From: Caulobacter segnis | GTDB taxonomy: Bacteria; Pseudomonadota; Alphaproteobacteria; Caulobacterales; Caulobacteraceae | Assembly (NCBI RefSeq): GCF_029543125.1 | Contig: NZ_JARQWW010000009.1 | Location: 1-64,000, forward strand | Direction of reading: 5' to 3' | Length of the DNA stretch: 64,000 nt | Part shown: piece by piece, positions 2,226-19,649 of the stretch | Position numbering within the stretch: the first letter of the stretch is position 1 | Layout: each line of letters opens with the position of its first letter | Program-made: the position numbers and the translations under genes | Notes under the pieces: generated by a model | Told to the model about the DNA's origin: nothing | Databases searched by the model: none | What the model saw: the letters and a program-made list of their open reading frames with translations, nothing else

Positions 2226-3455
2226 GTGTGGGATGAACCGCTCGAGGGTGGGGCTCGGTGCAGTTCAGTGAAGCAGATCAAGGGCGGCGCGTCAGGGCGC
2301 TCTAATCCCGTCAAACGCAAGCGCCGCGTGGCGTTTCTCTACATCGCCCAATGGCACCAGATCCTGCACAGCATCACCATTGCGGTGGAGCTGGCGCGCG
2401 GCTGGCCCGAGATCGAAGTTCACGCCCTGGCGGTCACGCCTCGGCACCTGACCTACCTGCGCGAGGTCATCGCCAAGCTGGGCGGCGCACCGATCAAGCT
2501 GAAGCTCCTCGGGCCCGCGCCGTTGCGCAAGCTGCGCCGTCCCGGCGCCTCCACCCCGCCCAAGGCCTTGATGCTTGCGGCGAACCTGCGCGTGCTCGCC
2601 CGCTACGACGCCATCGTCACGCCCGAGCGGACGACGGCCATGGTCCGCCGCCTGGGCCTGACGCGGCCGCAGTTGATCTACACCCAGCATGGCGCCGGCG
2701 ACCGGGGCGGCCCGTTCGAGCCGCGCCTTGGCGTCTTCGACCTCGTCATGGCCTCTGGACCGAAGTACCGCGCCCGCATGGTCGACACCGGCCTCGTGGC
2801 GCCGGAACGATGCGCCGTGGTGGGTTATCCGAAGTTCGACCTGATCGACGCCGTGCCGCCCAGCGAGACCCGGCTGTTCGCGAACGACCGGCCGACCGTG
2901 GTTTACAATCCTCACTTCGATCCAGAAATCAGCTCCTGGCCGGCCTGGGGCATGCAGGTTCTGGAGCAGTTCGCCGCCCAGGACCGCTACAATCTGGTCT
3001 TCGCCCCGCACATCCGTCTTTTCGACGGGGCCAACATTCAAGACCGCGCAAGGCTGGCGAAGTTCAAGGGTCATCCCAATATCCGCATCGACTTGGGCGG
3101 GCCGGCGACCATCGACATGACCTACACCACCCTGGCGGACGCCTATCTGGGCGACGTCAGCAGCCAGATTTACGAGTTCCTCCGCAAGCCCCGGCCGGCG
3201 GCGTTCCTCAACGCCCATGGCGTGGCCTGGCGCGACAACCAGGACTACCGCCACTGGGCGTTCGGTCCGGTGGCGGAAAGCGTCGACGACGTGCTGTCCA
3301 CGGTCGATCGCGCCTTCGCCGAACGGGCGGCCTATGAACCTGAGCAGCAGGCTGGTCTCAGCGAAACCTTCGACCTGCGACCAGAACCCTCATCCCTGCG
3401 CGCGGCCCAGGCCGTTGCGAAATGCCTCGAGAAGGCGCAAACGCGGCCATCATGA
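2226..3455 (+). CDS. TagF-like (CDP-glycerol glycerophosphotransferase family) protein at the sphingolipid locus
   Basis: A 409-residue GT-B-like protein. Features resembling the CDP-glycerol glycerophosphotransferase family (PF04464) are YTQHGAGDRGG, DLVMASG, GYPKFD, YNPHFDPE, FAPHIRL and a C-terminal ADAYLGDVSSQIYEFL. That last motif is the equivalent of the DYSS motif of TagF. It is the first gene of a run that continues through the hydroxylase, flippase and ceramide genes, and its stop overlaps the hydroxylase start (ATGA). By context it may transfer a phosphoglycerol or phosphoglycerate unit onto ceramide or a surface glycolipid; this is inference. The N terminus is uncertain: the GTG at 2226 and a GTG at 2268 are both possible, and the conserved part begins near RRVAFLYIAQWHQ. 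Confidence 0.72.
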   Translation: MWDEPLEGGARCSSVKQIKGGASGRSNPVKRKRRVAFLYIAQWHQILHSITIAVELARGWPEIEVHALAVTPRHLTYLREVIAKLGGAPIKLKLLGPAPLRKLRRPGASTPPKALMLAANLRVLARYDAIVTPERTTAMVRRLGLTRPQLIYTQHGAGDRGGPFEPRLGVFDLVMASGPKYRARMVDTGLVAPERCAVVGYPKFDLIDAVPPSETRLFANDRPTVVYNPHFDPEISSWPAWGMQVLEQFAAQDRYNLVFAPHIRLFDGANIQDRARLAKFKGHPNIRIDLGGPATIDMTYTTLADAYLGDVSSQIYEFLRKPRPAAFLNAHGVAWRDNQDYRHWAFGPVAESVDDVLSTVDRAFAERAAYEPEQQAGLSETFDLRPEPSSLRAAQAVAKCLEKAQTRPS

Positions 3456-4210
3456 CCAAGGACACCTCCCCCGCCGCTCTCGAGCGGATCCGTGACGCCG
3501 CCCTGCGCTACGACCTCGGGCGCATGGATATGAAGCGCCTGACCATCGTCTATTTCACCTATCCGGCCGTGCTGGTTTACCTGGTGCTGTCGGCGGCGGC
3601 GATCTGGGGCGCGGTGGCGACCAGCGCCGGCGTGCAGCCGTGGCGCCTGCTGGCGGCCTTCGCCGCGGCGCAATTCCTGTATCCGGTCGTTTGGTACGGC
3701 CTGCACCGCTGGATCCTGCACGGCCGCTGGCTGTACCGCATGAAGTGGTCGGCCACCCTGTGGAAGCGCATCCACTACGATCACCACCAGCAGCCCAACC
3801 GCATGGACGTGCTGTTCGGTTCGCTGACCAATACCCTGCCGACCATCTCACTGGCCACGGTGCCGGTGGGCTATCTGATCGGCGGCTGGAGCGCGGCGTT
3901 CACGGCACTGGCCACCGGCCTGCTGATGACCTGCGTGTACGAGTTCTGCCACTGCATCCAACACCTGAACTACATCCCGAAGAACAAGTGGCTGGCCCGC
4001 ATCAAGATGCTGCACATGGCCCACCACTTCCACAACGAGAACGGCAACTACGGGATCATCACCTACTGGCCCGACGCCCTGCTCGGCACGCTGTATGGCG
4101 CCAAGGAGCGCCCGCGCAGCCCGACGGTGTTCAACCTGGGCTATGACGGCGAAGAGGCCGAGCGCTACCCCTGGGTCGCCGAGCTTTCCGGCGACACGCC
4201 CCGGCGCTAG
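3452..4210 (+). CDS. Sterol desaturase/fatty acid hydroxylase superfamily protein
   Basis: A 252-residue membrane-bound di-iron hydroxylase. The histidine clusters of the superfamily are visible in order: HRWILH, HYDHH, HCIQHLN and HMAHHFHNENGNYG, with hydrophobic segments before and between them. Sphinganine C4-hydroxylases and ceramide fatty-acyl 2-hydroxylases belong to this family, and the gene lies in a sphingolipid cluster. Hydroxylation of the ceramide long-chain base or N-acyl chain is therefore the leading inference. An ATG at 3422 is in frame, but the ATG at 3452 forms an ATGA overlap with the preceding stop and is preferred. Carotenoid hydroxylases share the fold, but no carotenoid gene is nearby. 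Confidence 0.85.
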   Translation: MTKDTSPAALERIRDAALRYDLGRMDMKRLTIVYFTYPAVLVYLVLSAAAIWGAVATSAGVQPWRLLAAFAAAQFLYPVVWYGLHRWILHGRWLYRMKWSATLWKRIHYDHHQQPNRMDVLFGSLTNTLPTISLATVPVGYLIGGWSAAFTALATGLLMTCVYEFCHCIQHLNYIPKNKWLARIKMLHMAHHFHNENGNYGIITYWPDALLGTLYGAKERPRSPTVFNLGYDGEEAERYPWVAELSGDTPRR

Positions 4211-4216
4211 GACAAG

Positions 4217-5545
4217 GTGCAGATCCCGACGACAGGCCTGCTGCGCCGCGTCCTGACCAATACGGGGGTCCTCCTCGGCGGTCGGGTCGTAAACGCAGTC
4301 ATCAGCCTCGCCTACATGGCGGTGGCCGCCCGCGCGCTCGGCGCGTCGGGCCTGGGCGTGCTCGTCCTGATCAACGCCTTCGCCCAACTCATGGGCGACG
4401 CGGTGAAGTTCCAGTCCTGGCAGACCGTGCTGAACTATGGCGCGGCCCCCTTCGCGGAGGGGCGCAAAGCCGACTTCCAGCGCGTGGTGCGCTTCACAGT
4501 GTTCCTCGACATCGTCAGCGGTCTGGTCGGCGTTGTGCTGGGCATCGCCGGCGCCATCGTGTTCGACGAGGAGCTGGGCTGGACCGTCGCCCAAGCGCCG
4601 GCCGCCGCGCTCTACGCCCTGTCGATCATCGCCATGGCGCCGGCGACGCCGCTTGGCCTGCTGCGCCTGTTCAACCGCTTCGACCTGATGTCGGCGCAGT
4701 TCGCCATCCAGTCCGCGGTCCGTCTGGCTGGCGGGCTGATCGCCTGGTGGATGAACGCCCCGCTGGAGGCCTTCCTGCTGGTCTGGGCCGCCGGCACGGT
4801 GGCCCAGTTCGTCTATCTCGCCATCGTCTCGGTGCGTGAGATGGCTCAACGCAACCTGCTGTCCGACTGGAGCTGGAAAGGCCCGCTGACCGCCGGCATG
4901 CCCGGCGCCTGGCGCTTCGCCTGGGCCACAAATTTCAGCGCCACCGTGGACGTCATGTTCACCCATGTGGTCACCCTGGTGATCGGCGCGGTCATGGGGC
5001 CGGCGCCCGCCGCCCTGTGGCGCGTGGGCCGGCAGGTGGCCGACGCCCTGGCCAAGCCCGCCAAGCTGCTGATCCCCGCCCTCTATCCGGAACTGGCCCG
5101 CCTGCGCGCCGCCAAGGGCGAGGCTGCCATGACCAAGCTGGCGGTCCAGGTCGGCCTGTTGGGCGGCGGCATCGCCACGTTGCTGCTGGTGGTCACCATC
5201 TTCGCGGGCGGACCGATCCTCACCATCGTCATGGGGCCGGCTTTCGCTGACGCCGAGGAGGTCATGGTCTGGCAGGTGGCCGCCGCCGTGGTCGCCATCT
5301 GGGCCCTGCCGTTGGAGCCGATGCTTGTCTCCCTGGGTCAAGCAGGCGCCGCCTTGCGCGTCCGTTTGGGCGTCTGCGTCCTTTATCTTGGCCTGCTGGT
5401 TCCGGTCGTCCGCGCCTGGGGGCCGAACGGCGCCGGCGCCGCACTTGTCGGCGCGGGGATACTTATGGGCCTGGGCATGCTATGGGCGCTGCGTCGCGGC
5501 CAACGCCTCAATCCCGAAATCAAACCACTTGATAGCGCTGTCTAA
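4217..5545 (+). CDS. Wzx/MATE-like lipid or oligosaccharide flippase
   Basis: A 442-residue polytopic membrane protein with about 12 predicted hydrophobic segments and an N terminus typical of polysaccharide transporters (LTNTGVLLGGRVVNAVISLAYMAVAARALGASGLGV). It lacks catalytic motifs. It starts at a GTG six bases after the hydroxylase stop and is followed 20 bp later by the acyl-ACP synthetase, so it is inside the sphingolipid transcription unit. Wzx/MurJ-like members of the MOP superfamily flip lipid-linked precursors across the inner membrane. Here the cargo could be a decorated ceramide or a precursor, which is inference. It could also serve an unrelated surface glycan. Confidence 0.8.
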   Translation: MQIPTTGLLRRVLTNTGVLLGGRVVNAVISLAYMAVAARALGASGLGVLVLINAFAQLMGDAVKFQSWQTVLNYGAAPFAEGRKADFQRVVRFTVFLDIVSGLVGVVLGIAGAIVFDEELGWTVAQAPAAALYALSIIAMAPATPLGLLRLFNRFDLMSAQFAIQSAVRLAGGLIAWWMNAPLEAFLLVWAAGTVAQFVYLAIVSVREMAQRNLLSDWSWKGPLTAGMPGAWRFAWATNFSATVDVMFTHVVTLVIGAVMGPAPAALWRVGRQVADALAKPAKLLIPALYPELARLRAAKGEAAMTKLAVQVGLLGGGIATLLLVVTIFAGGPILTIVMGPAFADAEEVMVWQVAAAVVAIWALPLEPMLVSLGQAGAALRVRLGVCVLYLGLLVPVVRAWGPNGAGAALVGAGILMGLGMLWALRRGQRLNPEIKPLDSAV

Positions 5546-5565
5546 AGCGCGCGAAACCCCGACTG

Positions 5566-7272
5566 ATGATCACGCCCACAGCTCCTGACCGCGCCCTGCG
5601 CCACGCCGACTTCGCCACCCTGACGGAGGCGCTCGACTACGCGGCCACCTGCACGACAGGCATGAACCTGTATTCGCTGCGTGGCGAGCTGGTCGAAGCC
5701 CTGCCCTATTCGACCCTGCGCACCGACGCCCTGGCCATGGCCCAGCGCCTGCTGGCCAGCGGCCTGAAGCCGGGCGACCGCGTGGGCCTGATCGCGGAGA
5801 CGGACGGCGACTTCGTGCGCGGCTTCTTCGCCTGCCAATATGCCGGCGTGATCCCGGCGCCCCTGCCGCTGCCCGCCGCGCTCGGCGGCCGCGCCCCCTA
5901 CATCGCGCAGATCGCCCGGCTGCTGCAGTCGGCGGACGCGGCGGCCGTGTTCGGCCCCGAGGCGATGCAGGAGTTCGTCAAGGAAGCGGCCGAGCAAGCC
6001 GGGGTGAAGACCTATGGCCTGATGCGGGATCTGCCCCAAGGCACGGCCGAGCTGCCCGCCATTACGCCGGACAGCCCCTGCTATCTGCAGTTCTCGTCGG
6101 GCAGCACGCGCTTCCCCACCGGGGTTCTGGTCATGCACCGCGCCATGATGGCCAACGCCGTGGCCATCACCCGCGACGGGCTGAAGGTGAAGGCTGAGGA
6201 CCGCGCGGTTTCGTGGCTGCCGCTCTATCACGACATGGGCATGGTCGGCTTCCTGCTCAGCCCGATGTCGAGCCAGATGTCGGTGGACCTGCTGCCCACC
6301 GGCGCCTTCGTCCGCCGCCCGCTGTTGTGGCTGGACCTGATCACCAAGAACGGCGGCACGATCACCTACAGCCCGAGCTTCGGGTTCGAGCTGTGCGCCC
6401 GCCGCGGCGAAAGCGCCGCCATCGACCATCTGAACCTGTCGGGCCTGCGCATCGCCGGCATCGGCGGCGACATGATCCGCATGAAGCCGCTGCAGGCCTT
6501 CGCCGAGACCTTCGCCAAGGTGGGCTTCGACAAGCGCGCCTATTTCGCCAGCTACGGCATGGCCGAGGCGACCCTGGCCCTCAGCATGGCCCCGCTGAAC
6601 GGCGGCCTGGTCGCCGAAGCGCTTGACCTTCACAAGCTGGAGCATGACGGCGTCGCCGTGGCGGCCGCCTCCGACGTTCCGGCCCGCGCCTTCGCCCGCT
6701 GCGGCCCGGCCTTGCCGCATCACGAACTGGAAGTTCGCGACATCGACGGTTCGGTTCTGCCCGAGCGCCGTGTCGGTCGCATCTACGCCCGCGGCCCGAG
6801 CCTGATGAAGGGCTACTTCCGCCAGCCCGAGGTCACGGCCGAGGTGCTGTCCGAAGACGGTTGGCTGGACACCGGCGACCTTGGCTACTTCGTCGAGGGC
6901 GAGATCGTCATCACCGGACGCGCCAAGGACCTGATCATCCTCAACGGCCGCAACATCTGGCCGCAGGACCTGGAATGGACCGCCGAGGCGGAGATCTCGA
7001 CCCTGCGCAGCGGCGACGTGGCCGCCTTCTCCGTGGCCGGCGAAGGCGAAGAGGCCATCGTGGTTCTCGCCCAGTGCCGCAGCTCCGATCCGCAGGTGCG
7101 CAGCGCCCTGACCGAAGAGATCGCCAACGTCCTGCGCGTGCGGCACAGCATTGAGGCGCGGGTGCAGTTGGTGGGTTCGCACGCCCTGCCGCAGACCTCT
7201 TCGGGCAAGCTGAGCCGCTCCAAGGCCAAGGCCAGCTACATCGCCGGAGCCTTCACGCCGGAAGCGGCCTGA
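5566..7272 (+). CDS. Fatty acyl-ACP synthetase of sphingolipid synthesis (AMP-binding, FadD/Acs-type)
   Basis: A 568-residue adenylate-forming enzyme. The ATP-binding P-loop FSSGSTRFPTGV is near residue 177, with SYGMAEATLAL and WLDTGDLGYF further on and a C-terminal catalytic Lys region ending SSGKLSRSKAKA. It resembles FadD32-like fatty acyl-AMP ligases. In Caulobacter crescentus the equivalent gene, next to spt, acp and cerR, is known to support sphingolipid synthesis by charging the dedicated ACP with a fatty acid. The cerR-type gene starts 2 bp after its stop, which indicates tight co-translation. The specific acyl chain cannot be read from sequence. Confidence 0.9.
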   Translation: MITPTAPDRALRHADFATLTEALDYAATCTTGMNLYSLRGELVEALPYSTLRTDALAMAQRLLASGLKPGDRVGLIAETDGDFVRGFFACQYAGVIPAPLPLPAALGGRAPYIAQIARLLQSADAAAVFGPEAMQEFVKEAAEQAGVKTYGLMRDLPQGTAELPAITPDSPCYLQFSSGSTRFPTGVLVMHRAMMANAVAITRDGLKVKAEDRAVSWLPLYHDMGMVGFLLSPMSSQMSVDLLPTGAFVRRPLLWLDLITKNGGTITYSPSFGFELCARRGESAAIDHLNLSGLRIAGIGGDMIRMKPLQAFAETFAKVGFDKRAYFASYGMAEATLALSMAPLNGGLVAEALDLHKLEHDGVAVAAASDVPARAFARCGPALPHHELEVRDIDGSVLPERRVGRIYARGPSLMKGYFRQPEVTAEVLSEDGWLDTGDLGYFVEGEIVITGRAKDLIILNGRNIWPQDLEWTAEAEISTLRSGDVAAFSVAGEGEEAIVVLAQCRSSDPQVRSALTEEIANVLRVRHSIEARVQLVGSHALPQTSSGKLSRSKAKASYIAGAFTPEAA

Positions 7273-7273
7273 C

Positions 7274-8215
7274 ATGGCCCTGGCGGCGGTCACCGGCGCC
7301 ACCGGGTTCCTCGGCCGCCATCTGGTCCGCGCCCTGACCAAGGCCGGGTTCGAGGTCCGCTGCCTGATGCGCCGCGACCCGGTGCATCCCCTGTGGCGGA
7401 ATATCGAACCTGAGCTGGTGCTAGGGTCGCTGTCCGATCAGGACGCCCTCGACCGCCTCTGTGACGGCGCCGATGTGGTCATCCACTGCGCCGGCCTCAT
7501 CAAGGCGCGCAGCCGGGCCGAATTCGACGCCGTGAACCTCGACGGCGCCGTGGCCGTGGCCCAGGCCGCGATCCGCAAGGTGCCAAAGGCCCGGTTCCTG
7601 CTGATCTCCAGCCTCGTCGCACGCGAGCCGCAGCTTTCCCACTACGCCGCCAGCAAGCGGGCCGGCGAAGAGGCCGTGGCCAAGCTTCTGGGCGAGCGGC
7701 TGACCGTGGTGCGCCCGCCGGCCATCTACGGCCCTGGCGACATCGAGACCTTCGCCCTGTTCAAGGCCGCCGCCACGGCGCCGCTCTTACCGGTGTTTGA
7801 TTCGCACGCCCGCATCGCCCTGGTGCATGTGGAGGACGCGGCGGCGCAGATCACCGCCGTGGCGAGTGATGAGAAACCAGGCGCCTTGGCGACCCTGTGC
7901 GACGAAAATCTCGCCGGCTACAGCTGGGTGGAATTGATGGAGGCCGCCTCGGCGGCGGTCGGCCGCAAGCCTATTCTGGTCAAGCTTCCCGGAGGCGTTG
8001 TGAAGCTGGTCGGCATGCTCGGAAGCCTTGCGGCCAAAGGAAGCAATGCCGCCATGCTGACCTCGGAGAAGGCCCGCGAAATCCTTCATCCCGACTGGTC
8101 AGTGTCGCTTAAAGAGCACAATGGGCGACTTCCCGCACCCCAATGGGGTCTGAAACCAGGTTTCGTGCAAACCGTGTCGTGGTATCGCAAGAACGGCTGG
8201 TTGCCCCCCCTTTAA
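7274..8215 (+). CDS. cerR: CerR-type ceramide (3-ketosphinganine/oxo-ceramide) reductase, NAD(P)-dependent epimerase fold
   Basis: A 313-residue extended SDR protein. GATGFLGRHL at residues 8-17 is the Rossmann nucleotide-binding motif; S112/S113, Y124 and K128 (YAASK) form the catalytic set. Its position between the acyl-ACP synthetase and acp-spt matches the Caulobacter gene cerR, whose product reduces the 3-keto group during ceramide synthesis. In bacteria, reduction is thought to follow N-acylation. It begins 2 bp after the acs-like stop. After its stop comes a 30-70 bp gap with promoter-like elements before the ACP gene. Confidence 0.9.
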   Translation: MALAAVTGATGFLGRHLVRALTKAGFEVRCLMRRDPVHPLWRNIEPELVLGSLSDQDALDRLCDGADVVIHCAGLIKARSRAEFDAVNLDGAVAVAQAAIRKVPKARFLLISSLVAREPQLSHYAASKRAGEEAVAKLLGERLTVVRPPAIYGPGDIETFALFKAAATAPLLPVFDSHARIALVHVEDAAAQITAVASDEKPGALATLCDENLAGYSWVELMEAASAAVGRKPILVKLPGGVVKLVGMLGSLAAKGSNAAMLTSEKAREILHPDWSVSLKEHNGRLPAPQWGLKPGFVQTVSWYRKNGWLPPL

Positions 8216-8217: not shown

Positions 8218-8250
8218 TTGACGTTCAACCGCCCACGTTTTTGTTACAAT
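8218..8250 (+). promoter_or_regulatory. Candidate promoter elements upstream of the ACP-spt pair
   Basis: TTGACG at 8218-8223 and TACAAT at 8245-8250 resemble sigma-70 -35 and -10 hexamers, but the 21-base spacer is longer than optimal. The -10 hexamer runs into the ATG at 8249. If the promoter is active, translation from 8249 is unlikely, and the ATG at 8288 becomes the better start of the carrier protein. Confidence 0.35.
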
Positions 8251-8287
8251 GGTGTCACGGCAGCGGGGGCTGTTGAACACCTTCACC

Positions 8288-8560
8288 ATGCACGGGCTGG
8301 CGTCACCGTTGGAAACAGTAACCGATCTTACCCTTCGCGAAATTGGCCGCGCGGCTGAAACCGTGCTCGGCCGCAGCGTCGAGGTGTCCGAGGACACCGA
8401 TATCATGCGCGATCTCGAAGTGGATTCCCTCGCTCTGATGAACATCGTCATGGAGCTTGAGGACGCGTTCGACCTTTCGATTCCGCTGGATCGTCTCGCC
8501 GACGTCCAGACCGCCGGCCAGCTCGCCGGCCTCATCAAAGACCTCAAGAAAAGAAACTAG
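8288..8560 (+). CDS. Dedicated acyl carrier protein for sphingolipid synthesis
   Basis: A 90-residue acyl carrier protein. The phosphopantetheine serine lies in DLEVDSLALMNIVMELED, and the helix after it is acidic as in other ACPs. It sits between the cerR-type gene and spt (3-bp gap to spt), as in C. crescentus, where the carrier supplies the fatty acyl donor to serine palmitoyltransferase. Two ATGs are possible. The one at 8249 overlaps a TACAAT promoter-like hexamer and would add 13 atypical residues, so 8288 is preferred, although its ribosome-binding site is weak. Confidence 0.9.
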   Translation: MHGLASPLETVTDLTLREIGRAAETVLGRSVEVSEDTDIMRDLEVDSLALMNIVMELEDAFDLSIPLDRLADVQTAGQLAGLIKDLKKRN

Positions 8561-9811: not shown

Positions 9812-9845
9812 AACGCGCCCGTCCTCAGGACCGGGCGCGTTTTGC
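9812..9845. terminator. Bidirectional terminator between spt and the Mam41-like gene
   Basis: A hairpin with arms AACGCGCCCG and CGGGCGCGTT, extended inside by TCCT/AGGA. It is followed by a TTTT run on the plus strand and by a less perfect AT-containing run on the minus strand. It lies between convergent operons and spans the stop codon of the minus-strand gene, so that gene's last codons form one stem arm. Confidence 0.8.
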
Positions 9846-10742
9846 TTTCCAGAGCCTCAGGATCGCACCCGGCGCCGCCAGCACCGGATGCCGTTCGCGC
9901 CAGGGGGTCAGGGGTACGGGCAGGCCCGTGTGCCGCTCGATCTTCCAGGCGGCGTAGCGTGCGGCCCCCTCGAAGGTGAAGGCGGCCTTGATCAGGCGCG
10001 CCACGTTCAGCGGCTTGCCCATGGTCCGGCGCAGGGCCCAGGCGCGCAGGATGCGGCGGCGCTCCGCCTCGCTGAGCTGCGGCGACAGCTCTCCGCTTGT
10101 CTCGGTGAACGCCAGGGCGTCAGCTCGCCACGCGGCGGTCAGACGCTCCGCATAGCGCGCGGGGTCGACGTCGAGGATCGAGCGCTCACGCCCCGGCGCC
10201 TCGACCCGCAGTTCGGCGGCGTAGGTCTGACGGAACAGGGCGGCCCAGAAATCATCGGCGGAGCCCTTCTCCGGCCCCAGCGCGGCGGCGAAGCGGGCGG
10301 CGGTGACGGCGGCCGCCGCGACGGCGCCCTCCACCTGCGGCCCGGCCACGCCGACGGCCGTCCAGACCACCCGCGTCGGCTGGACGAAGCGGGCCCAGAT
10401 CGTGGTGTCCAGATGCCGCCCCTCGGCGGCGGCCCGAAACTGCTCCAGGCTCATGCTGGCGACCTTGGCCCGCAGGACGCATCCTTCAATCTCCAGCTCG
10501 TGATAGCTCACGTCCGGCCACAGCCAGCGGCTGGCCAGGCCGAACGGTCCGCGACGGCCCGGGCGGTCGTTGAGCAGGTAGTAGTCGAGCACCCCGTCCA
10601 GATCGCCGGTGCGCAGGATCGAGCCGTAGAACAGCACCGCCCGAACGCCGTCGCGCGTCGCCAGATGCTCGGCGAAGGCGCGGATCTGCGGCAGGACAGG
10701 CTGGCGAAGCTCTTCGCCGACGAGGGTGGACAGCTCGCTCAT
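9825..10742 (-). CDS. Mam41/Tam41-like nucleotidyltransferase (putative CDP-ceramide synthase)
   Basis: A 305-residue protein with a nucleotidyltransferase signature VLFYGSILRTGDLDGVLDYY at about residues 36-55, resembling the GS...D(Y/F) motif of the mitochondrial CDP-diacylglycerol synthase Tam41. It is the last gene of a three-gene operon with a lipid kinase and a CDP-alcohol transferase; its ATG overlaps the kinase stop by 4 bp. In C. crescentus the corresponding trio makes ceramide phosphoglycerate. The inferred reaction is CTP plus ceramide-1-phosphate giving CDP-ceramide. The C terminus is basic (LWKAKRARS), consistent with membrane association. The biochemical step is not proven by sequence. 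Confidence 0.75.
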   Translation of the reverse strand: MSELSTLVGEELRQPVLPQIRAFAEHLATRDGVRAVLFYGSILRTGDLDGVLDYYLLNDRPGRRGPFGLASRWLWPDVSYHELEIEGCVLRAKVASMSLEQFRAAAEGRHLDTTIWARFVQPTRVVWTAVGVAGPQVEGAVAAAAVTAARFAAALGPEKGSADDFWAALFRQTYAAELRVEAPGRERSILDVDPARYAERLTAAWRADALAFTETSGELSPQLSEAERRRILRAWALRRTMGKPLNVARLIKAAFTFEGAARYAAWKIERHTGLPVPLTPWRERHPVLAAPGAILRLWKAKRARS

Positions 10743-11656
10743 GGGGCGAGGAAGGTCACGGGAGCGGCCAGGCGGATTTCAACCGCACCGCCTGGATAAA
10801 TCTCGCCATCGACCACGAAGGGTTCGGGAATCCACAGGTTAAGGACCTCGGCGTCGCCGCGGCGATAACCGGCGGCGGCCAGCTCTTCCGTACCCGTGCC
10901 CTTCAGCAGCTTGGGGATCGCCTTGTGGAGGCGGTTCGGCGGGGCGTCCACGTCCAGGTACTTCAGGCCATAACGCGGCTCACCGAAGGGCTTCAGCCCG
11001 AACGGCATGCGTTTCAGCGCAGTGGCCAGGAACACGAAGCGCGAGCGCACGTAGCCGGCCTCGCCGTCAGCGGCCACGCGCATCGGCACGCCGCCGCGCC
11101 AGGCATAGCTTTCGTCCCCGGTCAGAGTGCGGAACACCGCGCCCATCAGGGTCACCGCCACGGCCAGGTTATGGAACGCGCCCCAGGCGTGGACCGTCTG
11201 GGCCATGTTGGTGGCCCGCACGAAAGCGGCGGCTCCCATGATGAACCCCTGCAGCGGCGGATGCCCGCCTTCCGGCCAGGTGATCAGCATGGGCGAGCGC
11301 TGCTTGGTGACCGGCGCCTTGGCCTCGGCCTTCTTTAGGGCGTCCTGCAGCGACCAGTCGCGCGGGGCCTCCAGATCCAGGGCCAGCATGTTGGTCTTGC
11401 CCGACGGCAGCACCGCCACCAGCGGCTGACGCTTGCCGAACGCCTCGGGCATGGCGGTCAGCACTTCGCGCACCGTGCCGTCGCCGCCGTCGATGACCAG
11501 CAGAGAGACGCCAGCCTTGGCGAAGCGGCGCAGGGTCTCGGCCAGATCCTCCGGCGTGGAGGGCTCCGCGAAAAGGCATGCGCCGTCGCCCGCGCCCAGC
11601 GGGCCGACGCCCCGGTTGCCGTGGCTCTTGGGATTACGAATGACGCCGGGGATCAT
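10739..11656 (-). CDS. cpgB: Ceramide kinase of the diacylglycerol-kinase family
   Basis: A 305-residue lipid kinase. The DAGK catalytic nucleotide loop is visible as LVIDGGDGTVREVL near residues 54-67, followed by LPSGKTNMLALD where diacylglycerol kinases normally have a G-T-x-N-D motif. The gene matches the position and family of the Caulobacter ceramide kinase CpgB. It would phosphorylate ceramide to ceramide-1-phosphate, the entry to the anionic head group. It starts one base after the CDP-alcohol transferase stop and overlaps the Mam41-like gene by 4 bp, so all three are translationally coupled. Diacylglycerol or a related lipid is the alternative substrate. Confidence 0.84.
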   Translation of the reverse strand: MIPGVIRNPKSHGNRGVGPLGAGDGACLFAEPSTPEDLAETLRRFAKAGVSLLVIDGGDGTVREVLTAMPEAFGKRQPLVAVLPSGKTNMLALDLEAPRDWSLQDALKKAEAKAPVTKQRSPMLITWPEGGHPPLQGFIMGAAAFVRATNMAQTVHAWGAFHNLAVAVTLMGAVFRTLTGDESYAWRGGVPMRVAADGEAGYVRSRFVFLATALKRMPFGLKPFGEPRYGLKYLDVDAPPNRLHKAIPKLLKGTGTEELAAAGYRRGDAEVLNLWIPEPFVVDGEIYPGGAVEIRLAAPVTFLAP

Positions 11657-11657: not shown

Positions 11658-12779
11658 TCAGGCGGCCAGCCACGAGGTGATGGAGCCCTTGGGCGCGCGC
11701 TCAGCCTGGACGATCTGGGCGGCGTGGACCCCGAAGCAGATCACCGTCCAAAGGGCCACCGCGGCGAGGCCCAGGTCCGGACGGCCGACCAGCACCGACA
11801 GGGTCAGCAGGATCAGGTTCGGGTTCCGGCGAGCGGTGATCAGACGGAAGAAGCTGTCGAACGGACGCCAGGCGTGCATCTCCAGCTTGAAGCGGCCAAG
11901 GAAGATGCCCTCCTCGATGCGCTGGGCCACATAGCCGCCGGCGACGATGGCCAGGAACAGGCCCTCCCACGGCAGCGGATGCGGCCCGGCCTGCACCCCC
12001 ACCAGCCATGCCCACCACCAGAACGGCGGGTGGATCAGGTCGATGCCATGGTCGAAGACATTGCCGATCTTCGACGAGGTCAGGGTCACCCGGGCCAGCT
12101 TGCCGTCCACGGTGTCTAGGAAGGTCATGATCCAGGCGCAGATCAGACCCAGGGCGAAGTGGCCGGTCCAGAACAGGCCGAAGGCGGCGAGCACCAGGAT
12201 GAAGCCGATCATGGTCACCTGGTTCGGCGTCATGCCGGCCAGGGCGCACCAGCGGGTGACGACCCGCGCCGGCGCCGGCCAGACATACTTGGTCACCAGA
12301 TCCGTGACCCCCTTGTAGGAGCCCTGGAACAGGCGCTTCTCCACCGCCCGCACGCGCTCGGCGGTCAGGCGCTCCAGAACCGGGGCCTCACGCTTGCGCA
12401 GGGCGCTGTTGTAGGCGGAGCCCAGCTCCAGCGCGGTCAGGCGTTTCAACGGCAGGCTGGACGGATCCGCGGCCGCCGTCGGGGCATCGGCGGCGGTGAC
12501 GCAGACGGCGGTCACGGCGCCGGTGTCGTCGATCAGGGCCACGCCCGGCTGGCCGGCCAGGGCCTTGATCAGGGACTCGTCGAACACCCAGCCGGCGTTG
12601 GCCAGCACCACGACACGGTCGCGATCAGCGGGAACGGCGGTCGCGGGCTCGACGCCCACGCGGCGGAAGATGCGGTTCAGACGCTCGGTCGAAGTCATGC
12701 CCCAGATCCGAACACCCGCCTCGCCCACGACCAGCCCGACAGGCTGGCGGCCTTCCTCGGCGCCCGATACGGTCGTCAC
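11658..12779 (-). CDS. CDP-alcohol phosphatidyltransferase with N-terminal nucleotidyltransferase-like domain
   Basis: A 373-residue protein. The complete CDP-alcohol phosphotransferase signature D-x2-D-G-x2-A-R-x8-G-x3-D-x3-D lies at about residues 222-247, inside a region with several membrane segments. The first 110-150 residues form a soluble domain (RDRVVVLANAGWVFDESLI) like those fused to inositol- or glycerol-type CDP-alcohol transferases. The GTG start at 12779 is preferred because AAGGGGTGG precedes it by about 8 bases; the frame is open further upstream. With the kinase and Mam41-like gene it should attach a head group to activated ceramide, giving ceramide phosphoglycerate or a similar anionic lipid. 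Confidence 0.82.
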   Translation of the reverse strand: MTTVSGAEEGRQPVGLVVGEAGVRIWGMTSTERLNRIFRRVGVEPATAVPADRDRVVVLANAGWVFDESLIKALAGQPGVALIDDTGAVTAVCVTAADAPTAAADPSSLPLKRLTALELGSAYNSALRKREAPVLERLTAERVRAVEKRLFQGSYKGVTDLVTKYVWPAPARVVTRWCALAGMTPNQVTMIGFILVLAAFGLFWTGHFALGLICAWIMTFLDTVDGKLARVTLTSSKIGNVFDHGIDLIHPPFWWWAWLVGVQAGPHPLPWEGLFLAIVAGGYVAQRIEEGIFLGRFKLEMHAWRPFDSFFRLITARRNPNLILLTLSVLVGRPDLGLAAVALWTVICFGVHAAQIVQAERAPKGSITSWLAA

Positions 12780-12856
12780 CTGCAAACCACCCCTTGCAAT
12801 CAGGCCGCCTTGATACGCAGGTTCGGGCCGACTGACCAGAAACCGACCGGCCCGCT

Positions 12857-13732
12857 TTGTATCGCCTCGCACATTTTTCCGACCCGCATCTGCCGTCGCC
12901 CCCTGGGTCGATGACGATCAGCTACGCCATGACCAAGCGGCTGTTCAGCTGGTCCTCCTGGCGGCGCAAGCGAAGCAAGCACCACAAGAAGGCCGTGCTC
13001 GACGCGATCACCGCCGACGTGGCCGCTTGGAGCCCTGATCATCTGGTGATCACGGGCGACCTGATCAACTTCGCCGCCGACAAGGAGTTCGCCGCCGCCA
13101 GAGCCTGGCTTGAAAGCCTAGGCCCCGCGCACGACGTCACCGTGACGCCCGGCAACCATGACGCCCTGGCCGGCTGCGGCGAGTTCGGCCCTTGGGCCGA
13201 ATGGCTCGAAGACGAAACGACCGACAGCTTTCCCAAGGTGCGCATCCGCGGCGAGGTCGCCGTGATCTGCGTCAACACCGGCCTGCCCACCGCGCCTTTC
13301 CTGGCCACCGGGACGTGCGGCGAGGCGCAGTTGGCCCGCCTGGGTCCGATCCTGGACGATCTGAAGGCGCGCGGCCTGTTCCGCATCATCGCCCTGCATC
13401 ACCCGCCGACCCCCGGCGGCTCGGCGCGCAAGGCGCTGACCGACCAGAAAGCGCTGCGGGATATCCTCGGCCGGCATGGCGCGGAGTTGATCCTACACGG
13501 CCACACGCATGTGCCGCTGCTGGGTTCTGTGAAGGGTCCTGACGGCCAGATCGCGACGGTCTGCGCGCCATCGGCCTCTCAGCGGCCCGTCGGCAAGAAC
13601 AACGCCGCCCGCTGGCACGGGATCGAGATCGAGCGGGGCGGAAGCGGCTGGAAGGTTCGAGTGGAGGTCAGGGGCTTCGCGCCCGACGGCGATGCTGTCG
13701 AGCCGCTGGGCCAGTATCGCCTGGACGCCTGA
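12857..13732 (+). CDS. Calcineurin-like metallophosphoesterase (Icc/CpdA-like)
   Basis: A 291-residue two-metal phosphoesterase. All five motifs are visible: HFSDPHL near the N terminus, ITGDLIN, TPGNHD, LHHPP and HGHTHVPL. It starts at TTG (12857), which puts YRLAHFSDPHL at the N terminus as expected, and is divergent from the CDP-alcohol transferase across 77 bp. CpdA-like cAMP phosphodiesterases and LpxH-like UDP-diacylglucosamine hydrolases share the fold. LpxH-type lipid chemistry is tempting in this lipid cluster but unproven. It converges exactly with the DUF2141 gene, with no gap between the stops. Confidence 0.85.
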   Translation: MYRLAHFSDPHLPSPPGSMTISYAMTKRLFSWSSWRRKRSKHHKKAVLDAITADVAAWSPDHLVITGDLINFAADKEFAAARAWLESLGPAHDVTVTPGNHDALAGCGEFGPWAEWLEDETTDSFPKVRIRGEVAVICVNTGLPTAPFLATGTCGEAQLARLGPILDDLKARGLFRIIALHHPPTPGGSARKALTDQKALRDILGRHGAELILHGHTHVPLLGSVKGPDGQIATVCAPSASQRPVGKNNAARWHGIEIERGGSGWKVRVEVRGFAPDGDAVEPLGQYRLDA

Positions 13733-14258: not shown

Positions 14259-14693
14259 GTGAGCAATCCCACAGCGTTGAATTTCGGCTTTCCTCGCACC
14301 AAGGTCGCCGAGACGGACCGTTGGCTTGTGCTTGTGCGGCCAAAGCAAGCCACATTTGGGTCTTTGGTTTTGATATGCAAGGAGCCGGCCCGCTCGCTCG
14401 CTGAACTCAGTGTCGAGGCCTACGCTGATCTGCAACAGGCTGTCCAGCGGATCGAGGCGATGCTGCGGACCGTGGTGGATCACCAGAAGATCAACTATCT
14501 GGCTCTGATGATGGTCGACCCCGACGTTCATTTCCACGTCATCCCGCGATATGAGGGCGTACGCGAGCACGAGGGCCGCGCATTCCGGGACGCCGGCTGG
14601 CCGGCCGTTCCCAATCTGGCCGAAACGGTGGAGCTGGACATGGACGCCGCATCGCGACTGGCCGAACACCTGCGCAGCGAATGGCGGGCCTAG
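14259..14693 (+). CDS. HIT-family protein with altered histidine triad
   Basis: A 144-residue histidine-triad-like protein. The motif reads D89-V-H91-F-H93-V-I-P-R, so the first His of the HxHxHxx triad is replaced by Asp while the central nucleophile His is kept. HIT proteins hydrolyse or transfer nucleotidyl groups. Here it sits immediately before the LptF-like permease (GTG start one base after its stop) in the ceramide locus, so it may act on a CDP- or AMP-linked intermediate; this is inference. It starts at GTG 14259 after AAGGCAGG. It is divergent from the DUF2141 gene. Confidence 0.85.
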   Translation: MSNPTALNFGFPRTKVAETDRWLVLVRPKQATFGSLVLICKEPARSLAELSVEAYADLQQAVQRIEAMLRTVVDHQKINYLALMMVDPDVHFHVIPRYEGVREHEGRAFRDAGWPAVPNLAETVELDMDAASRLAEHLRSEWRA

Positions 14694-14694
14694 G

Positions 14695-16967: not shown

Positions 16968-18124
16968 TGGCCTTCGACAGCCATGCGTCGGCGGGCGTCA
17001 CCGTCAAGGCGGTGCGCACGCGCGCCGAGCTCGACCGCTTCATCCGCGTGCCCATGCGCCTGAACAAGGGCGATCCGAACTGGATCGCCCCCTTGATCAG
17101 CGAACGGCAGGAAGCCCTGTCGGCCAAGTCCAACCCGTTCTTCGAGCACGCCCAGGTCGAGATGTGGCTGGCCGTGCGCGACGGCCAGGACGTGGGCCGC
17201 ATCAGCGCTCAGATCGACGAACTCGCTCCTGCCGATCCGAGTCGCAAGATCGGCCATTTCGGCATGATCGCGGGCGAAGACGATCCGGCCGTGTTCGCGG
17301 CCCTGTTCGCCACCGCCGAGGCCTGGCTGAAGGACCGCGGCCGCGACACCGCCATGGGCCCCTTCAACCTGTCGGTGAACGAAGAAGTCGGCCTGCTGGT
17401 CGACGGCTTCGACACGCCGCCCATGCTGCTAATGGGCCACGACGCGCCCTATGCGGGCGGGCGGATCGAGCAGCAGGGCTACGCCAAGGCCAAGGACCTC
17501 TACGCCTACCTCGCCAACCTGACCCAGGACCTGCCCGACGCGGTGCTCAAACGCGTGCGGCGCGGCGCGGCCGACGGCGTGGTCCTGCGCAAGCTGGACA
17601 TGAAGCGGTTCGAGGATGAGGTGCACACCCTCACCGACATCGCCAACGACGCCTGGTCGGGCAACTGGGGCTACACCCCCTCGACGGCGGCCGAGACCAA
17701 GCAAATGGCCAAGGGCCTGAAGGCGGTGATTGACCCGGATTTGGTGTGGTTCGCGCAGATCGACGGCGAAGAAGCGGGCTTCATCGTCCTGCTGCCCAAC
17801 GTCAACGAGGCCATCGCAGACCTGGACGGAAAGCTGCTGCCCTTTGGCTGGGCCAAGCTGCTTTGGCGGCTGAAGGTCGCTCGCGTGAAGACCGTCCGCG
17901 TCCCCCTGATGGGCGTGCGCCGCAAGTTCGCGGGCAGCCGGCGCGGCATGATCCTGCCGTTCCACCTCATCGACCTGGCCGCCACCGAGGCGCGCCGCAA
18001 GGGCTATGAGCGGGTGGAGCTGTCCTGGATCCTCGACGACAACCTGCCCATGCGGAACATCTGCGAGCGGGTCGGCGCGGTCGCCTACAAGACCTATCGC
18101 CTCTACGAGAAGGCGCTGAAGTGA
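16964..18124 (+). CDS. bcerS: Bacterial ceramide synthase, GNAT-like N-acyltransferase
   Basis: A 386-residue protein with a C-terminal acetyltransferase-like fold (RRGMILPFHLIDLAATEARR, VELSWILDDNLPMRNICERV) and a family-specific N-terminal half (RVPMRLNKGDPNWIAPL, GPFNLSVNEEVGLLVDGF). Its family and neighbourhood match the C. crescentus ceramide synthase, which N-acylates the sphingoid base with an acyl-CoA or acyl thioester and is unrelated to eukaryotic ceramide synthases. It overlaps the LptG-like gene (ATGA) and the MobA-like gene (GTGA), so it is part of a four-gene coupled operon. The alternative is a generic GNAT-family acyltransferase, but the context makes ceramide synthase likely. 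Confidence 0.87.
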   Translation: MMAFDSHASAGVTVKAVRTRAELDRFIRVPMRLNKGDPNWIAPLISERQEALSAKSNPFFEHAQVEMWLAVRDGQDVGRISAQIDELAPADPSRKIGHFGMIAGEDDPAVFAALFATAEAWLKDRGRDTAMGPFNLSVNEEVGLLVDGFDTPPMLLMGHDAPYAGGRIEQQGYAKAKDLYAYLANLTQDLPDAVLKRVRRGAADGVVLRKLDMKRFEDEVHTLTDIANDAWSGNWGYTPSTAAETKQMAKGLKAVIDPDLVWFAQIDGEEAGFIVLLPNVNEAIADLDGKLLPFGWAKLLWRLKVARVKTVRVPLMGVRRKFAGSRRGMILPFHLIDLAATEARRKGYERVELSWILDDNLPMRNICERVGAVAYKTYRLYEKALK

Positions 18125-18891
18125 CCGCCTTCACCGCCCTCGTCTTGGCCGGTGATCGGGGCGAGCCCGACGCCGTCTCCGCCTATGCCGGCGTCGCCCA
18201 CAAGGGGCTGATCAAGCTTCAGGGTGAAATCCTGCTGGCGCGGGTTCTGAGAGCCCTGGCCGAGGCTGGTGCAACCCGCATCGGCGTCTGCGCCAACAAC
18301 GCCGAACTGCTGGCCGCCCTGCCCGCCGCCAGGCCCGTCGGCGTCGCCGTGGAGGTGATCGCGCCGGAGGCGGGGCCCAGCCTCAGTGTCCTGCGCTCGG
18401 CCCAGGCCCTGGGCACGCCGCTGCTGGTCACCACGGTGGATCACGCCCTGCTGAAGCCGGAATGGGTGAAGCAGTTCATCGCCGACGCGCCCGCCAGCTG
18501 CGACATCGCCGCCTTCCTGGCGCCAGAGGCCGCCGTGCGCCATGATGCGCCCGAGACTAAGCGCACCTGGCTGACCTTCCGCGACGGCCGCTACAGCGGC
18601 TGCAACCTGTTCCTGCTGAGGACGCCGTACGCCCTGAAGGCCATCGAGCTGTGGCGGACGGTGGAGGCGCACCGCAAGAAGCCCTGGCGGATCGCCCTGA
18701 TCCTGGGGCTCGGCACCTTGGCGCGCTTCGCTCTGGGCCGCCTGACCCTGGACCAGGCCATCGCCGACATCGGCAAGCGCGCGGGCGTGAAAGCGGCCGC
18801 CGTTCGTTCGAACTACGGCCTGGCGGCGGTTGATGTGGACAAGCCGGCGGACCTTGACCTGGTCCGCCAGATCACCGGCGAGCAGCCTTAG
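18121..18891 (+). CDS. MobA-like NTP transferase domain protein
   Basis: A 256-residue nucleotidyltransferase-fold protein beginning FTALVLAGDRGEPDAVSAYA, with LLVTTVDHALLKPEWV (the metal-binding Asp of the fold) and NYGLAAVDVDKPADLDLV at the C terminus, as in MobA/CobY/IspD relatives. The N-terminal loop lacks the usual GGxSxRMG signature, so the substrate is unclear. Its GTG overlaps the ceramide synthase stop by 4 bp. This suggests activation of a head-group precursor with CTP or another nucleotide for sphingolipid decoration. It converges with the LicC-like gene, overlapping it by 4 bp. Confidence 0.75.
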   Translation: MTAFTALVLAGDRGEPDAVSAYAGVAHKGLIKLQGEILLARVLRALAEAGATRIGVCANNAELLAALPAARPVGVAVEVIAPEAGPSLSVLRSAQALGTPLLVTTVDHALLKPEWVKQFIADAPASCDIAAFLAPEAAVRHDAPETKRTWLTFRDGRYSGCNLFLLRTPYALKAIELWRTVEAHRKKPWRIALILGLGTLARFALGRLTLDQAIADIGKRAGVKAAAVRSNYGLAAVDVDKPADLDLVRQITGEQP

Positions 18892-19649
18892 GCCGCGACG
18901 CTTTCCTTCGACATCCAGCGGGCCGTCAGCTCACGGTTGGGCTGCAGGTCGTGCGGGAAGTCCATCTCGGCCCATTCCAGGCCTTCGATGCTCTGGACGG
19001 CGACGCCGCCCTGCTCCTGGGCGATCTGGTTGATCACCGATAGGTACCAGCGCTTCAGGCCTTCGGCCGGATCACGCAGGATCTGGTCGATGACCGTGAT
19101 GAAGCGGCGGGCGCCTTCCGAAGAGAAGCGCAGGAAGCCGATCGACTCGGCATCGTACTCGGTGATCGTCTTGCCGATGGCCAGCAGTTCGTCGCCGTCG
19201 GTCAGGACCTTCATGTCGTCGGCGTCGTAGCGCGCCTTGCGGTCCACGGTGACGGTGATGTCGGCGGCGGGGGCGTCCAGCAGGCGACGGCCGATCTCCG
19301 GCTCCCACAGGGTGTCGCCGTTCAGGATCAGGGCGCCGCCGGCCAGCTCCTCACGGACCAGCCAGCAGGTCGCGAGGTTGTCGGACACCGTATAGAACGG
19401 GTTGTACAGGCAACGGACCGTCATGCCCGGCAGCGGCGTGCGGGCGACCTCGGCCTCCACGGCGTGCGAATTGAACCCGGTGACCACCACCACCTCGGTC
19501 AGGCCGATGGCGTGCAGGTGCGCCAGCTGCCACGAAAGCACGGTGCGGCCGGACAGATCGATCAGGCACTTGGGCAGGTTGTCGGTCAACGGCGACAAAC
19601 GCTTACCCTGTCCTGCAGCCAGGACGACGGCCTTGTGCACACGAGGCAT
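18888..19649 (-). CDS. Sugar/choline-phosphate nucleotidylyltransferase-like protein (LicC type)
   Basis: A 253-residue nucleotidylyltransferase. The signature AVVLAAGQGKRLSPLTDNLP leads the protein after the ATG at 19649, followed by PKCLIDLSGRTVLSWQL, LILNGDTLWEP (metal-binding GD) and EWAEMDFPHDL near the C terminus. It is closest in look to LicC/phosphocholine cytidylyltransferase-like and sugar-1-phosphate nucleotidylyltransferases. It converges with the MobA-like gene (4-bp overlap), placing two nucleotidyltransferases at the distal end of the sphingolipid locus. A role in making an activated head group or sugar is inferred only. The frame extends 27 codons upstream, but the signature favours 19649. 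Confidence 0.78.
   Translation of the reverse strand: MPRVHKAVVLAAGQGKRLSPLTDNLPKCLIDLSGRTVLSWQLAHLHAIGLTEVVVVTGFNSHAVEAEVARTPLPGMTVRCLYNPFYTVSDNLATCWLVREELAGGALILNGDTLWEPEIGRRLLDAPAADITVTVDRKARYDADDMKVLTDGDELLAIGKTITEYDAESIGFLRFSSEGARRFITVIDQILRDPAEGLKRWYLSVINQIAQEQGGVAVQSIEGLEWAEMDFPHDLQPNRELTARWMSKESVAA

What the first reader, a model, noticed from the sequence alone, without database searches (positions are those of the whole stretch)
2226..19649. Extended sphingolipid (ceramide) synthesis, tailoring and transport island
The core genes (acyl-ACP synthetase, CerR, ACP, Spt, GNAT-like ceramide synthase, ceramide kinase) are those known from Caulobacter. Here they sit in one 17-kb block with a hydroxylase, a TagF-like transferase, a flippase, two LptFG-like permeases, a HIT protein, a phosphoesterase and two nucleotidyltransferases. 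Much of the block is translationally coupled or opposing operons. Together they suggest a complete pathway for a hydroxylated, anionic outer-membrane sphingolipid, with several steps not yet assigned.
Basis: partly seen in the sequence, partly recalled or inferred. Interest (0 to 1): 0.85.

Follow-up and report, generated by a model that had tools for sequence, protein, structure and literature searches.

The report
Bacterial sphingolipid gene cluster with hydroxylase
This stretch is a relative of the known Caulobacter gene cluster that makes and exports a negatively charged sphingolipid, differing by an extra ceramide-hydroxylase-like gene and a missing transport gene; comparing it with relatives gives testable ideas for steps that are still unassigned.

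Summary
Window 2226-19730 holds 17 genes. Sixteen correspond to the published C. crescentus ceramide-diphosphoglycerate (CPG2) cluster CC_1168-CC_1152 (CCNA_01226-01210), in the order and orientation of fetched Caulobacter loci. So the "island" is a known kind, not a new pathway. No HIT family was listed.

What differs or is informative:
(1) An Scs7/FA2H-type hydroxylase (3422-4210) is inserted; no fetched Caulobacter or Phenylobacterium locus has it. Strong homologues occur in 24 of 32 spt-positive and 0 of 208 other sampled genomes of the class, 16 of 23 within 20 kb of spt.
(2) lptC2 is missing from cluster and genome although lptF2/lptG2 are present. One Phenylobacterium cluster instead has a second LptB and LptC.
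(3) CpgC (9825-10742), its mechanism called unidentified in print, is predicted to fold like the CDP-diacylglycerol synthase Tam41, suggesting a CDP-ceramide intermediate.
(4) CpgA and CpgD match, weakly, the two halves of the inositol-phosphate enzyme IPCT-DIPPS.
(5) 2307-3455 (CC_1167, called probably unrelated in print) has a predicted GT-B, weakly TagF-like fold; in the sample it occurs only with cpgA, though Zymomonas is reported as an exception.

Verdict: new variant of a known kind. No activity was shown here.

The parts
2226..3455 (+). g02, CC_1167-like; predicted GT-B fold, weakly TagF-like (CDP-glycerol glycerophosphotransferase family); start probably GTG 2307
   Evidence: AF2 pLDDT 90.0; Foldseek GT-B proteins; TagF first at rank 15, TM 0.61-0.63 by query length; PF04464 sub-threshold in 18 of 23 members; orthologues in Caulobacter loci
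3422..4210 (+). g03, PF04116 fatty-acid/ceramide hydroxylase of Scs7/FA2H type; not in the fetched Caulobacter clusters
   Evidence: Pfam 67 bits vs 31; only PDB sequence relatives up to E 1 are Scs7 4zr1/4zr0, E 7e-7 and 2e-6; ten histidines invariant in 36 of 36 rows; co-occurrence with spt
4217..5545 (+). g04, Wzx-like flippase (CC_1166)
   Evidence: PF01943 and WZX_like sub-threshold; conserved in cluster
5566..7272 (+). g05 aasR acyl-ACP synthetase / acyl-AMP ligase (CC_1165)
   Evidence: NF006624 858.6 bits vs 600
7274..8215 (+). g06 cerR reductase (CC_1164)
   Evidence: PF01370; position
8249..8560 (+). g07 acpR acyl carrier protein (CC_1163)
   Evidence: PF00550
8564..9784 (+). g08 spt serine palmitoyltransferase (CC_1162)
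   Evidence: NF047599 665.5 bits vs 500; 60-75% identity to the 80 kept loci
9825..10742 (-). g09 cpgC (CC_1161); predicted Tam41-like nucleotidyltransferase, proposed CTP:ceramide-1-phosphate cytidylyltransferase
   Evidence: AF2 pLDDT 93.1; Foldseek top five hits are all Tam41, E 2e-9 to 5e-8; invariant Y39-G40-S41...D53 in 34 of 34 rows
10739..11656 (-). g10 cpgB ceramide kinase (CC_1160)
   Evidence: PF00781; the C. crescentus orthologue was shown to be a ceramide kinase (PMC10331486, passages)
11658..12872 (-). g11 cpgA CDP-alcohol phosphotransferase (CC_1159), DIPPS-like C-terminal half; true start probably about 12779
   Evidence: PF01066; NF041135 residues 170-378 on model 206-407; PDB matches incl. 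4mnd, E 3e-5
12857..13732 (+). g12 metallophosphoesterase (CC_1158)
   Evidence: PF00149 60.2 bits
13733..14380 (-). g13 DUF2141 protein with signal-peptide-like start (CC_1157 position); role unknown
   Evidence: PF09912 102.5 bits
14551..15909 (+). g14 lptF2-like permease (CC_1156); start probably about 14695
   Evidence: PF03739 208.8 bits
15906..16967 (+). g15 lptG2-like permease (CC_1155)
   Evidence: PF03739 200.1 bits
16964..18124 (+). g16 cerS GNAT-like ceramide synthase (CC_1154)
   Evidence: PF00583 sub-threshold; 48-70% identity in cluster loci
18121..18891 (+). g17 MobA/KdsB-like nucleotidyltransferase (CC_1153)
   Evidence: PF12804; profile matches 2dpw E 3e-35 and CMP-KDO synthetases from E 1.5e-6
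18888..19730 (-). g18 cpgD CTP:phosphoglycerate cytidylyltransferase (CC_1152); ATG start at 19649
   Evidence: PF12804/PF00483; NF041135 IPCT half; PDB CTP:phosphocholine cytidylyltransferase 1jyk E 3e-12 and 4jd0 E 4e-4; orthologue characterised in PMC12275187

Best explanation
This is an orthologue of the C. crescentus CPG2 (ceramide diphosphoglycerate) cluster, in a small Caulobacteraceae clade that carries an added ceramide hydroxylase and presumably shares its single LptC between the LPS and sphingolipid exporters. Proposed flow: AasR loads AcpR; Spt makes 3-oxo-sphinganine; CerS and CerR give dihydroceramide; g03 hydroxylates it, most likely at C-2 of the N-acyl chain (inferred, about 0.6). 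CpgB makes ceramide-1-phosphate (shown in Caulobacter). CpgC, by its Tam41-like fold, activates it to CDP-ceramide (inferred, about 0.5), which is then joined to glycerate or phosphoglycerate to give CPG. CpgD makes CDP-glycerate (shown in Caulobacter), and the DIPPS-like CpgA transfers phosphoglycerate to give CPG2 (published proposal; it fits that CpgA and CpgD weakly match the two halves of IPCT-DIPPS). g17 and the phosphoesterase g12 assist at unknown steps. g02 with flippase g04 is an accessory module acting after the headgroup is begun (about 0.4). LptF2/LptG2 carry the lipid towards the outer membrane using shared LptB and LptC (inferred). The confidence given is for the locus and pathway identity; the single steps carry their own odds.
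For: Gene content and order. Published Caulobacter genetics and biochemistry. Hydroxylase. Tam41-like fold of CpgC. IPCT/DIPPS halves. One LptC over the cut-off beside four LptF/LptG. Three same-genus genomes have the same arrangement with the hydroxylase, and no lptC hit in the fetched stretches, which reach 1.5-2.2 kb beyond g02.
Against: No lipid data exist for this organism and no activity was tested. CpgC members gave no hit to a Tam41 Pfam family at E up to 1 and no PDB sequence match up to E 5; the Tam41 TM-scores are moderate (0.50-0.58), with 11-13% identity. The hydroxylase could act on the long-chain base instead (some PF04116 enzymes do; recalled). Eight of 32 spt-positive genomes lack a g03 homologue, so it is not obligatory. 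The genome also has a 73% homologue of one C. vibrioides PF00487 protein that may be the CC_0202-type hydroxylase, so g03 may be additional rather than replacing. CpgA is not needed for CPG in Caulobacter, so the enzyme joining CDP-ceramide to glycerate would be unknown.
Confidence: 0.85

Rival explanations
1. The cluster makes a sphingolipid with a different or longer headgroup than CPG2: g02 is a TagF-like phosphoglycerate (or glycerol-phosphate) transferase that extends CPG or CPG2, and g04 flips the product.
For: Predicted GT-B fold with TagF among the matches; PF04464 weak hits in 18 of 23 members; g02 present in 5 of 17 cpgA-positive and 0 of 15 cpgA-negative spt-positive genomes; the cluster supplies CDP-glycerate; CC_1167 mutants have cofitness 0.57 with spt and 0.54 with CC_1159 mutants.
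Against: TagF first appears at rank 15 by E-value, and some non-hydrolysing UDP-GlcNAc 2-epimerases match as well or better (TM 0.51-0.65 by query length, TagF 0.61-0.63); PF04464 cut-off not met; 12 of 17 cpgA-positive genomes lack g02; PMC11324152 reports Zymomonas as lacking CC_1159 (cpgA) but not CC_1167, against a strict tie to CPG2, and its beta- and gamma-proteobacterial clusters lack CC_1167; it reports only CPG and CPG2, and no CC_1167 mutant was lipid-profiled in the sections I read.
Confidence: 0.3
2. g03 is a sphinganine C4-hydroxylase (phytoceramide-forming, Sur2-like) rather than an N-acyl 2-hydroxylase.
For: PF04116 includes such enzymes (recalled). Homologues sit in Niveispirillum and Rhizomicrobium clusters whose lipid structures I did not look up.
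Against: The only PDB sequence relative is Scs7, a ceramide fatty-acid hydroxylase; few other enzymes of this family may be in the PDB, so this is weak. Myxobacterial FA2H homologues are fatty acid 2-hydroxylases (PMC10002949, passages).
Confidence: 0.25
3. The locus is degenerate or only partly active: without LptC2 the lipid stays in the inner membrane.
For: Only one LptC over the cut-off in the genome and no lptC hit in the fetched stretches of three same-genus relatives (their whole genomes were not searched for LptC).
Against: All 17 frames are open in the window and match the three relatives at 81-99% (one 46-residue piece of g14's N-terminus 67%). Of 14 genomes searched, 7 have one LptC over the cut-off (own and six with a cluster holding lptF2/lptG2-like genes) and 7 have two; the completeness of those six is not known to me.
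Confidence: 0.07

Closest known systems
C. crescentus CC_1168-CC_1152 / CCNA_01226-01210 CPG2 cluster (PMC11324152, PMC12275187, PMC10331486, PMC13228409)
   Same: Sixteen of 17 genes, order and orientation (compared through C. vibrioides DSM 9893 and other Caulobacter loci).
   Different: Extra PF04116 hydroxylase between the CC_1167 and CC_1166 homologues; lptC2 (CC_1168) absent from cluster and genome.
Scs7/FA2H ceramide fatty-acid 2-hydroxylases
   Same: PF04116 domain, conserved histidines, only PDB sequence match (residues 79-237).
   Different: Found here in a bacterial spt cluster; activity untested.
Tam41 CDP-diacylglycerol synthase
   Same: Predicted fold of CpgC; top five PDB matches, one of them a bacterial Tam41 (7ecd).
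   Different: 11-13% identity, no Pfam hit; presumed substrate ceramide-1-phosphate.
IPCT-DIPPS (inositol-1-phosphate cytidylyltransferase / di-myo-inositol-phosphate-phosphate synthase), NF041135
   Same: CpgD matches the first half, CpgA the second.
   Different: Two separate genes, glycerate chemistry, far below the family cut-off.
LptB2FGC LPS exporter
   Same: LptF- and LptG-like permeases side by side.
   Different: Paralogues below the NCBIfam equivalog cut-offs; no LptB or LptC in this cluster.

Membership tests
CPG2 sphingolipid cluster | five ceramide genes aasR, cerR, acpR, spt, cerS | tested here: met
CPG2 sphingolipid cluster | six headgroup genes CC_1161, 1160, 1159, 1158, 1153, 1152 | tested here: met
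   orthologues in order in Caulobacter loci
CPG2 sphingolipid cluster | transport genes flippase, lptF2, lptG2 and lptC2 | tested here: not met
   three present, lptC2 absent
CPG2 sphingolipid cluster | CPG/CPG2 lipid produced | not testable with these tools
   needs mass spectrometry
FA2H/Scs7 hydroxylase (PF04116) | family cut-off | tested here: met
   67 vs 31 bits
FA2H/Scs7 hydroxylase (PF04116) | conserved di-iron histidine boxes | tested here: met
   H95, H100, H118, H121, H122, H177, H181, H198, H201, H202 invariant in 36 of 36 rows; that such boxes bind iron is recalled
FA2H/Scs7 hydroxylase (PF04116) | hydroxylates ceramide acyl chain | not testable with these tools
   no assay
Tam41 CDP-DAG synthase | Tam41 Pfam family match | tested here: not met
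   no Tam41 family among the matches of 34 members up to E 1
Tam41 CDP-DAG synthase | same fold | tested here: met
   five best of 619 Foldseek matches, TM 0.50-0.58, on a predicted model
TagF (PF04464) | family cut-off | tested here: not met
   13.2 vs 22.1 bits
TagF (PF04464) | GT-B fold with TagF as closest structure | tested here: inconclusive
   TagF TM 0.61-0.63 from rank 15 on; epimerases 0.51-0.65 by query length
IPCT-DIPPS (NF041135) | family cut-off 580 bits | tested here: not met
   36.3 bits (CpgA) and 59.6 bits (CpgD)
LptF / LptG | PF03739 cut-off | tested here: met
   208.8 and 200.1 vs 27.9 bits
LptF / LptG | NCBIfam equivalog cut-offs of the LPS permeases | tested here: not met
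   194.4 vs 230 and 195.7 vs 240

The most novel reading that the evidence does not exclude
Alphaproteobacterial sphingolipid clusters ancestrally include an FA2H/Scs7-type ceramide hydroxylase. Their phosphoglycerate headgroup is built through a CDP-ceramide intermediate made by a Tam41-like enzyme (CpgC) plus a split IPCT-DIPPS pair (CpgD/CpgA), and in some lineages is extended by a TagF-like transferase (g02), a Gram-negative analogue of teichoic-acid chemistry on a ceramide anchor. The product is exported by an Lpt-type machine with interchangeable parts: own LptB, C, F and G in one Phenylobacterium, own C, F and G in Caulobacter, and only F and G here.
Probability: 0.25. Interest if true: 0.72.

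Novelty: new variant of a known kind. Interest (0 to 1): 0.5.

Why it matters
Survival of Caulobacter without LPS partly depends on CPG2 (PMC12275187 abstract), and the parts I saw of the 2025 and 2026 papers give no mechanism for the CpgC step. The fold and the split IPCT-DIPPS reading turn two open steps into single-enzyme assays. The spt-linked hydroxylase gives a candidate gene for hydroxylated sphingolipids in many Alphaproteobacteria. The natural absence of lptC2 here, and a second LptB in one Phenylobacterium, form a ready comparison for asking how Lpt-type exporters tell sphingolipid from LPS.

Tried and rejected
Rejected: that the block is a novel island (published). A HIT protein (no family listed). 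That g02 is LptC2: in Caulobacter loci an LptC-like ORF lies just before the g02 orthologue, and g02 has a predicted GT-B fold. That g02 is a proven TagF member (cut-off not met). That g03 is a clear horizontal gain: the Spt tree nests the window's clade of 4 inside a starred set of 21 Caulobacteraceae rows whose other 17 loci show no g03, but the next outgroups include Niveispirillum rows that have it (fork support 87, not starred), so loss and gain cannot be told apart (quick tree, many weak forks).

Led nowhere: which C. vibrioides PF00487 protein is CC_0202 was not settled (one search read minus-strand loci on the wrong strand and was redone). PDB sequence search with CpgC gave nothing; that with g02 gave only a weak TarL stretch, E 0.43, among unrelated hits. 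The weak profile match between CpgA's N-terminus and an AF2299 fusion was too low-scoring to use. A plasmid search found g03 homologues in 11 Roseomonas, 1 Sphingomonas and 1 Bacillus record, not followed. Promoters and terminators were not examined.

Selections: A1 used 21 of 24 extracted g02 ORFs plus L022; A2 33 of 63; A3 22 of 26; A4 23 of 41 (ORFs; each alignment plus the window). The trees: g03, 36 rows (duplicate own and shorter copies of the same loci dropped; no row fell under the length rule); Spt, 60 rows, namely the 35 with g03 and 25 hand-picked loci without it, of 112 loci with an Spt match.


Full report
What is there. The window (contig C11 of a 4.08-Mb genome, 99.99% complete) holds 17 genes between 2226 and 19730, followed by an N-formylglutamate amidohydrolase and a tRNA-Arg. 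Families. Same-strand neighbours overlap or lie 1-33 bases apart. No HIT family was listed for any of them.

It is a known cluster. What I saw of the papers: PMC11324152, outline, sections 4, 8 (first of two parts), 9, 13 and passages; PMC12275187, first of four parts and passages; PMC10331486, passages; PMC13228409, passages. They describe 17 C. crescentus genes, CC_1168-CC_1152: five for ceramide, six for the CPG/CPG2 headgroup, CC_1168/1156/1155 as second LptC/F/G, a flippase CC_1166, and CC_1167 and CC_1157 as probably unrelated. A scan of named genomes with the window's Spt gave 305 confirmed relatives, of which the best 80 loci were kept (NA1000 not among them). In C. vibrioides DSM 9893 (L022) the order is an LptC-like ORF, g02 homologue, flippase, aasR, cerR, acpR, spt, then cpgC, cpgB, cpgA on the other strand, phosphoesterase, DUF2141 (other strand), lptF2, lptG2, cerS, CC_1153, cpgD (other strand). 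By position and sequence g02 is therefore CC_1167. Many of the 80 loci are cut by contig ends or the 10-kb flank, so a gene missing from them is not proof of absence.

Difference 1, the hydroxylase. g03 (PF04116, 67 bits vs 31) lies between g02 and the flippase. It is found in 4 of the 80 loci, none of them Caulobacter or Phenylobacterium, and in 9 of 101 whole genomes, own included, at E <= 1e-10: own, three of the same genus at 92-98%, and five of two other families at 45-51%. In three of those five the hydroxylase stands divergently beside the aasR-spt operon with cerS a few kb away, in one the same beside aasR at a contig end, and in one beside spt and cerS. In a draw of 240 genomes of the class, 32 have Spt at E <= 1e-100. 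Strong g03 homologues (E <= 2.1e-75) occur in 24 of these 32 and in 0 of the other 208; three weak matches (E 3e-19 to 4e-17) occur among the 208. I take to be the same draw, as the handles listed agree; a genome with a more divergent Spt, or an incomplete one, would count as negative. Fisher p is 1e-25 without the own genome, or 3e-22 counting the weak ones; genomes are related, so this is a guide only, but by my count the 24 fall in 18 family codes. Of the 23 other than own, 17 have both genes on one contig and 16 within 20 kb. Eight spt-positive genomes lack it. Its only PDB sequence relatives up to E 1 are yeast Scs7, and ten histidines are invariant in 36 of 36 rows. Precedents: myxobacterial FA2H-like enzymes and P450 hydroxylases of Sphingomonas (PMC10002949, passages), CC_0202 of DesA type in Caulobacter, and a sphingolipid/fatty acid hydroxylase noted together with spt in the Rhodothalassium genome description (PMC11762602, one passage). 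Searches (listings) and term searches in PMC9386255, PMC11334938 and PMC13318209 showed me no paper describing this gene as part of alphaproteobacterial spt clusters; most subscription papers are not held, so I do not claim it is unpublished.

Difference 2, transport. PF06835 finds one LptC over the cut-off in the window's genome, in an lptC-lptA-lptB run on another contig. It is closer to the C. vibrioides copy outside the cluster (48%) than to the one in it (38%). Of 14 genomes searched, 7 have one LptC over the cut-off (own, G008-G013 except none other) and 7 have two (G001-G007). Four LptF/LptG proteins are present, as in seven of the other eight genomes examined; the eighth has five. The three same-genus relatives show no lptC hit in the fetched stretches. 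Phenylobacterium deserti has, beside cpgD, an LptC and an LptB-like ATPase (74-75% to the window's LptB), in addition to an LptC with an LptB elsewhere. Parts of the second Lpt system thus come and go.

Unassigned enzymes. CpgC: AF2 mean pLDDT 93.1. The five best of 619 Foldseek matches are all Tam41 (E 2e-9 to 5e-8, TM 0.50-0.58); the next is an aminoglycoside nucleotidyltransferase at E 8e-5. No Pfam or PDB sequence match supports it. PMC11324152 notes an InterPro CDP-DAG-synthase hint and NDP-activated ceramide as a possibility, and PMC13228409 calls the mechanism unidentified, so a CDP-ceramide step is a sharper form of an existing suggestion. A search for CDP-ceramide, CpgC, CCNA_01219 or Tam41 gave 135 papers; none of the 25 listed holds the term CDP-ceramide. 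CpgA and CpgD match the second and first parts of NF041135, both far below its cut-off; this fits the published proposal that CpgA uses the CDP-glycerate made by CpgD. g17 resembles 2dpw and CMP-KDO synthetases. g02: AF2 90.0, GT-B, weak TagF/TarL signals. It occurs in 5 of 32 spt-positive genomes, all five among the 17 with cpgA (one-sided chance about 0.03, worked out by hand). Against a strict tie, PMC11324152 lists Zymomonas as lacking CC_1159 but not CC_1167. Its reported cofitness of CC_1167 with spt (0.57) and with CC_1159 (0.54) speaks against the label unrelated.

Shown and inferred. Shown in Caulobacter by others: ceramide genes, CpgB kinase, CpgD product, need for CpgA, CpgC, CC_1153 and CC_1152, a contribution of CC_1158. 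Shown here: gene content, order, co-occurrence, predicted folds. Inferred: all activities in this organism, the hydroxylation site, CDP-ceramide, the g02 reaction, and LptC sharing.

Verdict. An orthologue of a described cluster with two informative differences; interest 0.5.

Noticed in passing
L192 (Phenylobacterium deserti genome G007) 2461-3917, minus strand: A second LptB-like ATPase and an LptC stand beside cpgD, although an LptC with an LptB exists elsewhere in that genome; the published Caulobacter cluster description names no second LptB.
   Followed up: partly
genomes G150, G276, G278, G298, G206: These five spt-positive genomes carry a second (two of them a third) more distant CpgA homologue (E 2e-63 to 5e-50); in four of the five one copy lies within 0.2 kb of the hydroxylase homologue, which might mark a further headgroup step.
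   Followed up: no
window 13733-14380, minus strand: DUF2141 protein with a signal-peptide-like start is kept in the cluster in many relatives, and related sequences (32-34%) lie beside spt in another family (L129-L131), although it was called probably unrelated in print.
   Followed up: no
L049, L066, L069, L070: Some Caulobacteraceae loci have aasR, acpR, spt, cerS and lptF2/G2-like genes but no detected cpgA, cpgB or cpgC in the stretch held, suggesting a different headgroup with the same exporter; contig ends limit this.
   Followed up: no
window 2226-3455 and 11658-12872: Longest-ORF starts look too early: g11 and g12 overlap at their 5' ends by 16 bases unless g11 starts near 12779.
   Followed up: partly
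window 37611-39290, minus strand: D-3-phosphoglycerate dehydrogenase (PF02826, PF19304), an enzyme of phosphoglycerate use, lies about 18 kb from the CPG2 cluster; probably ordinary serine synthesis.
   Followed up: no
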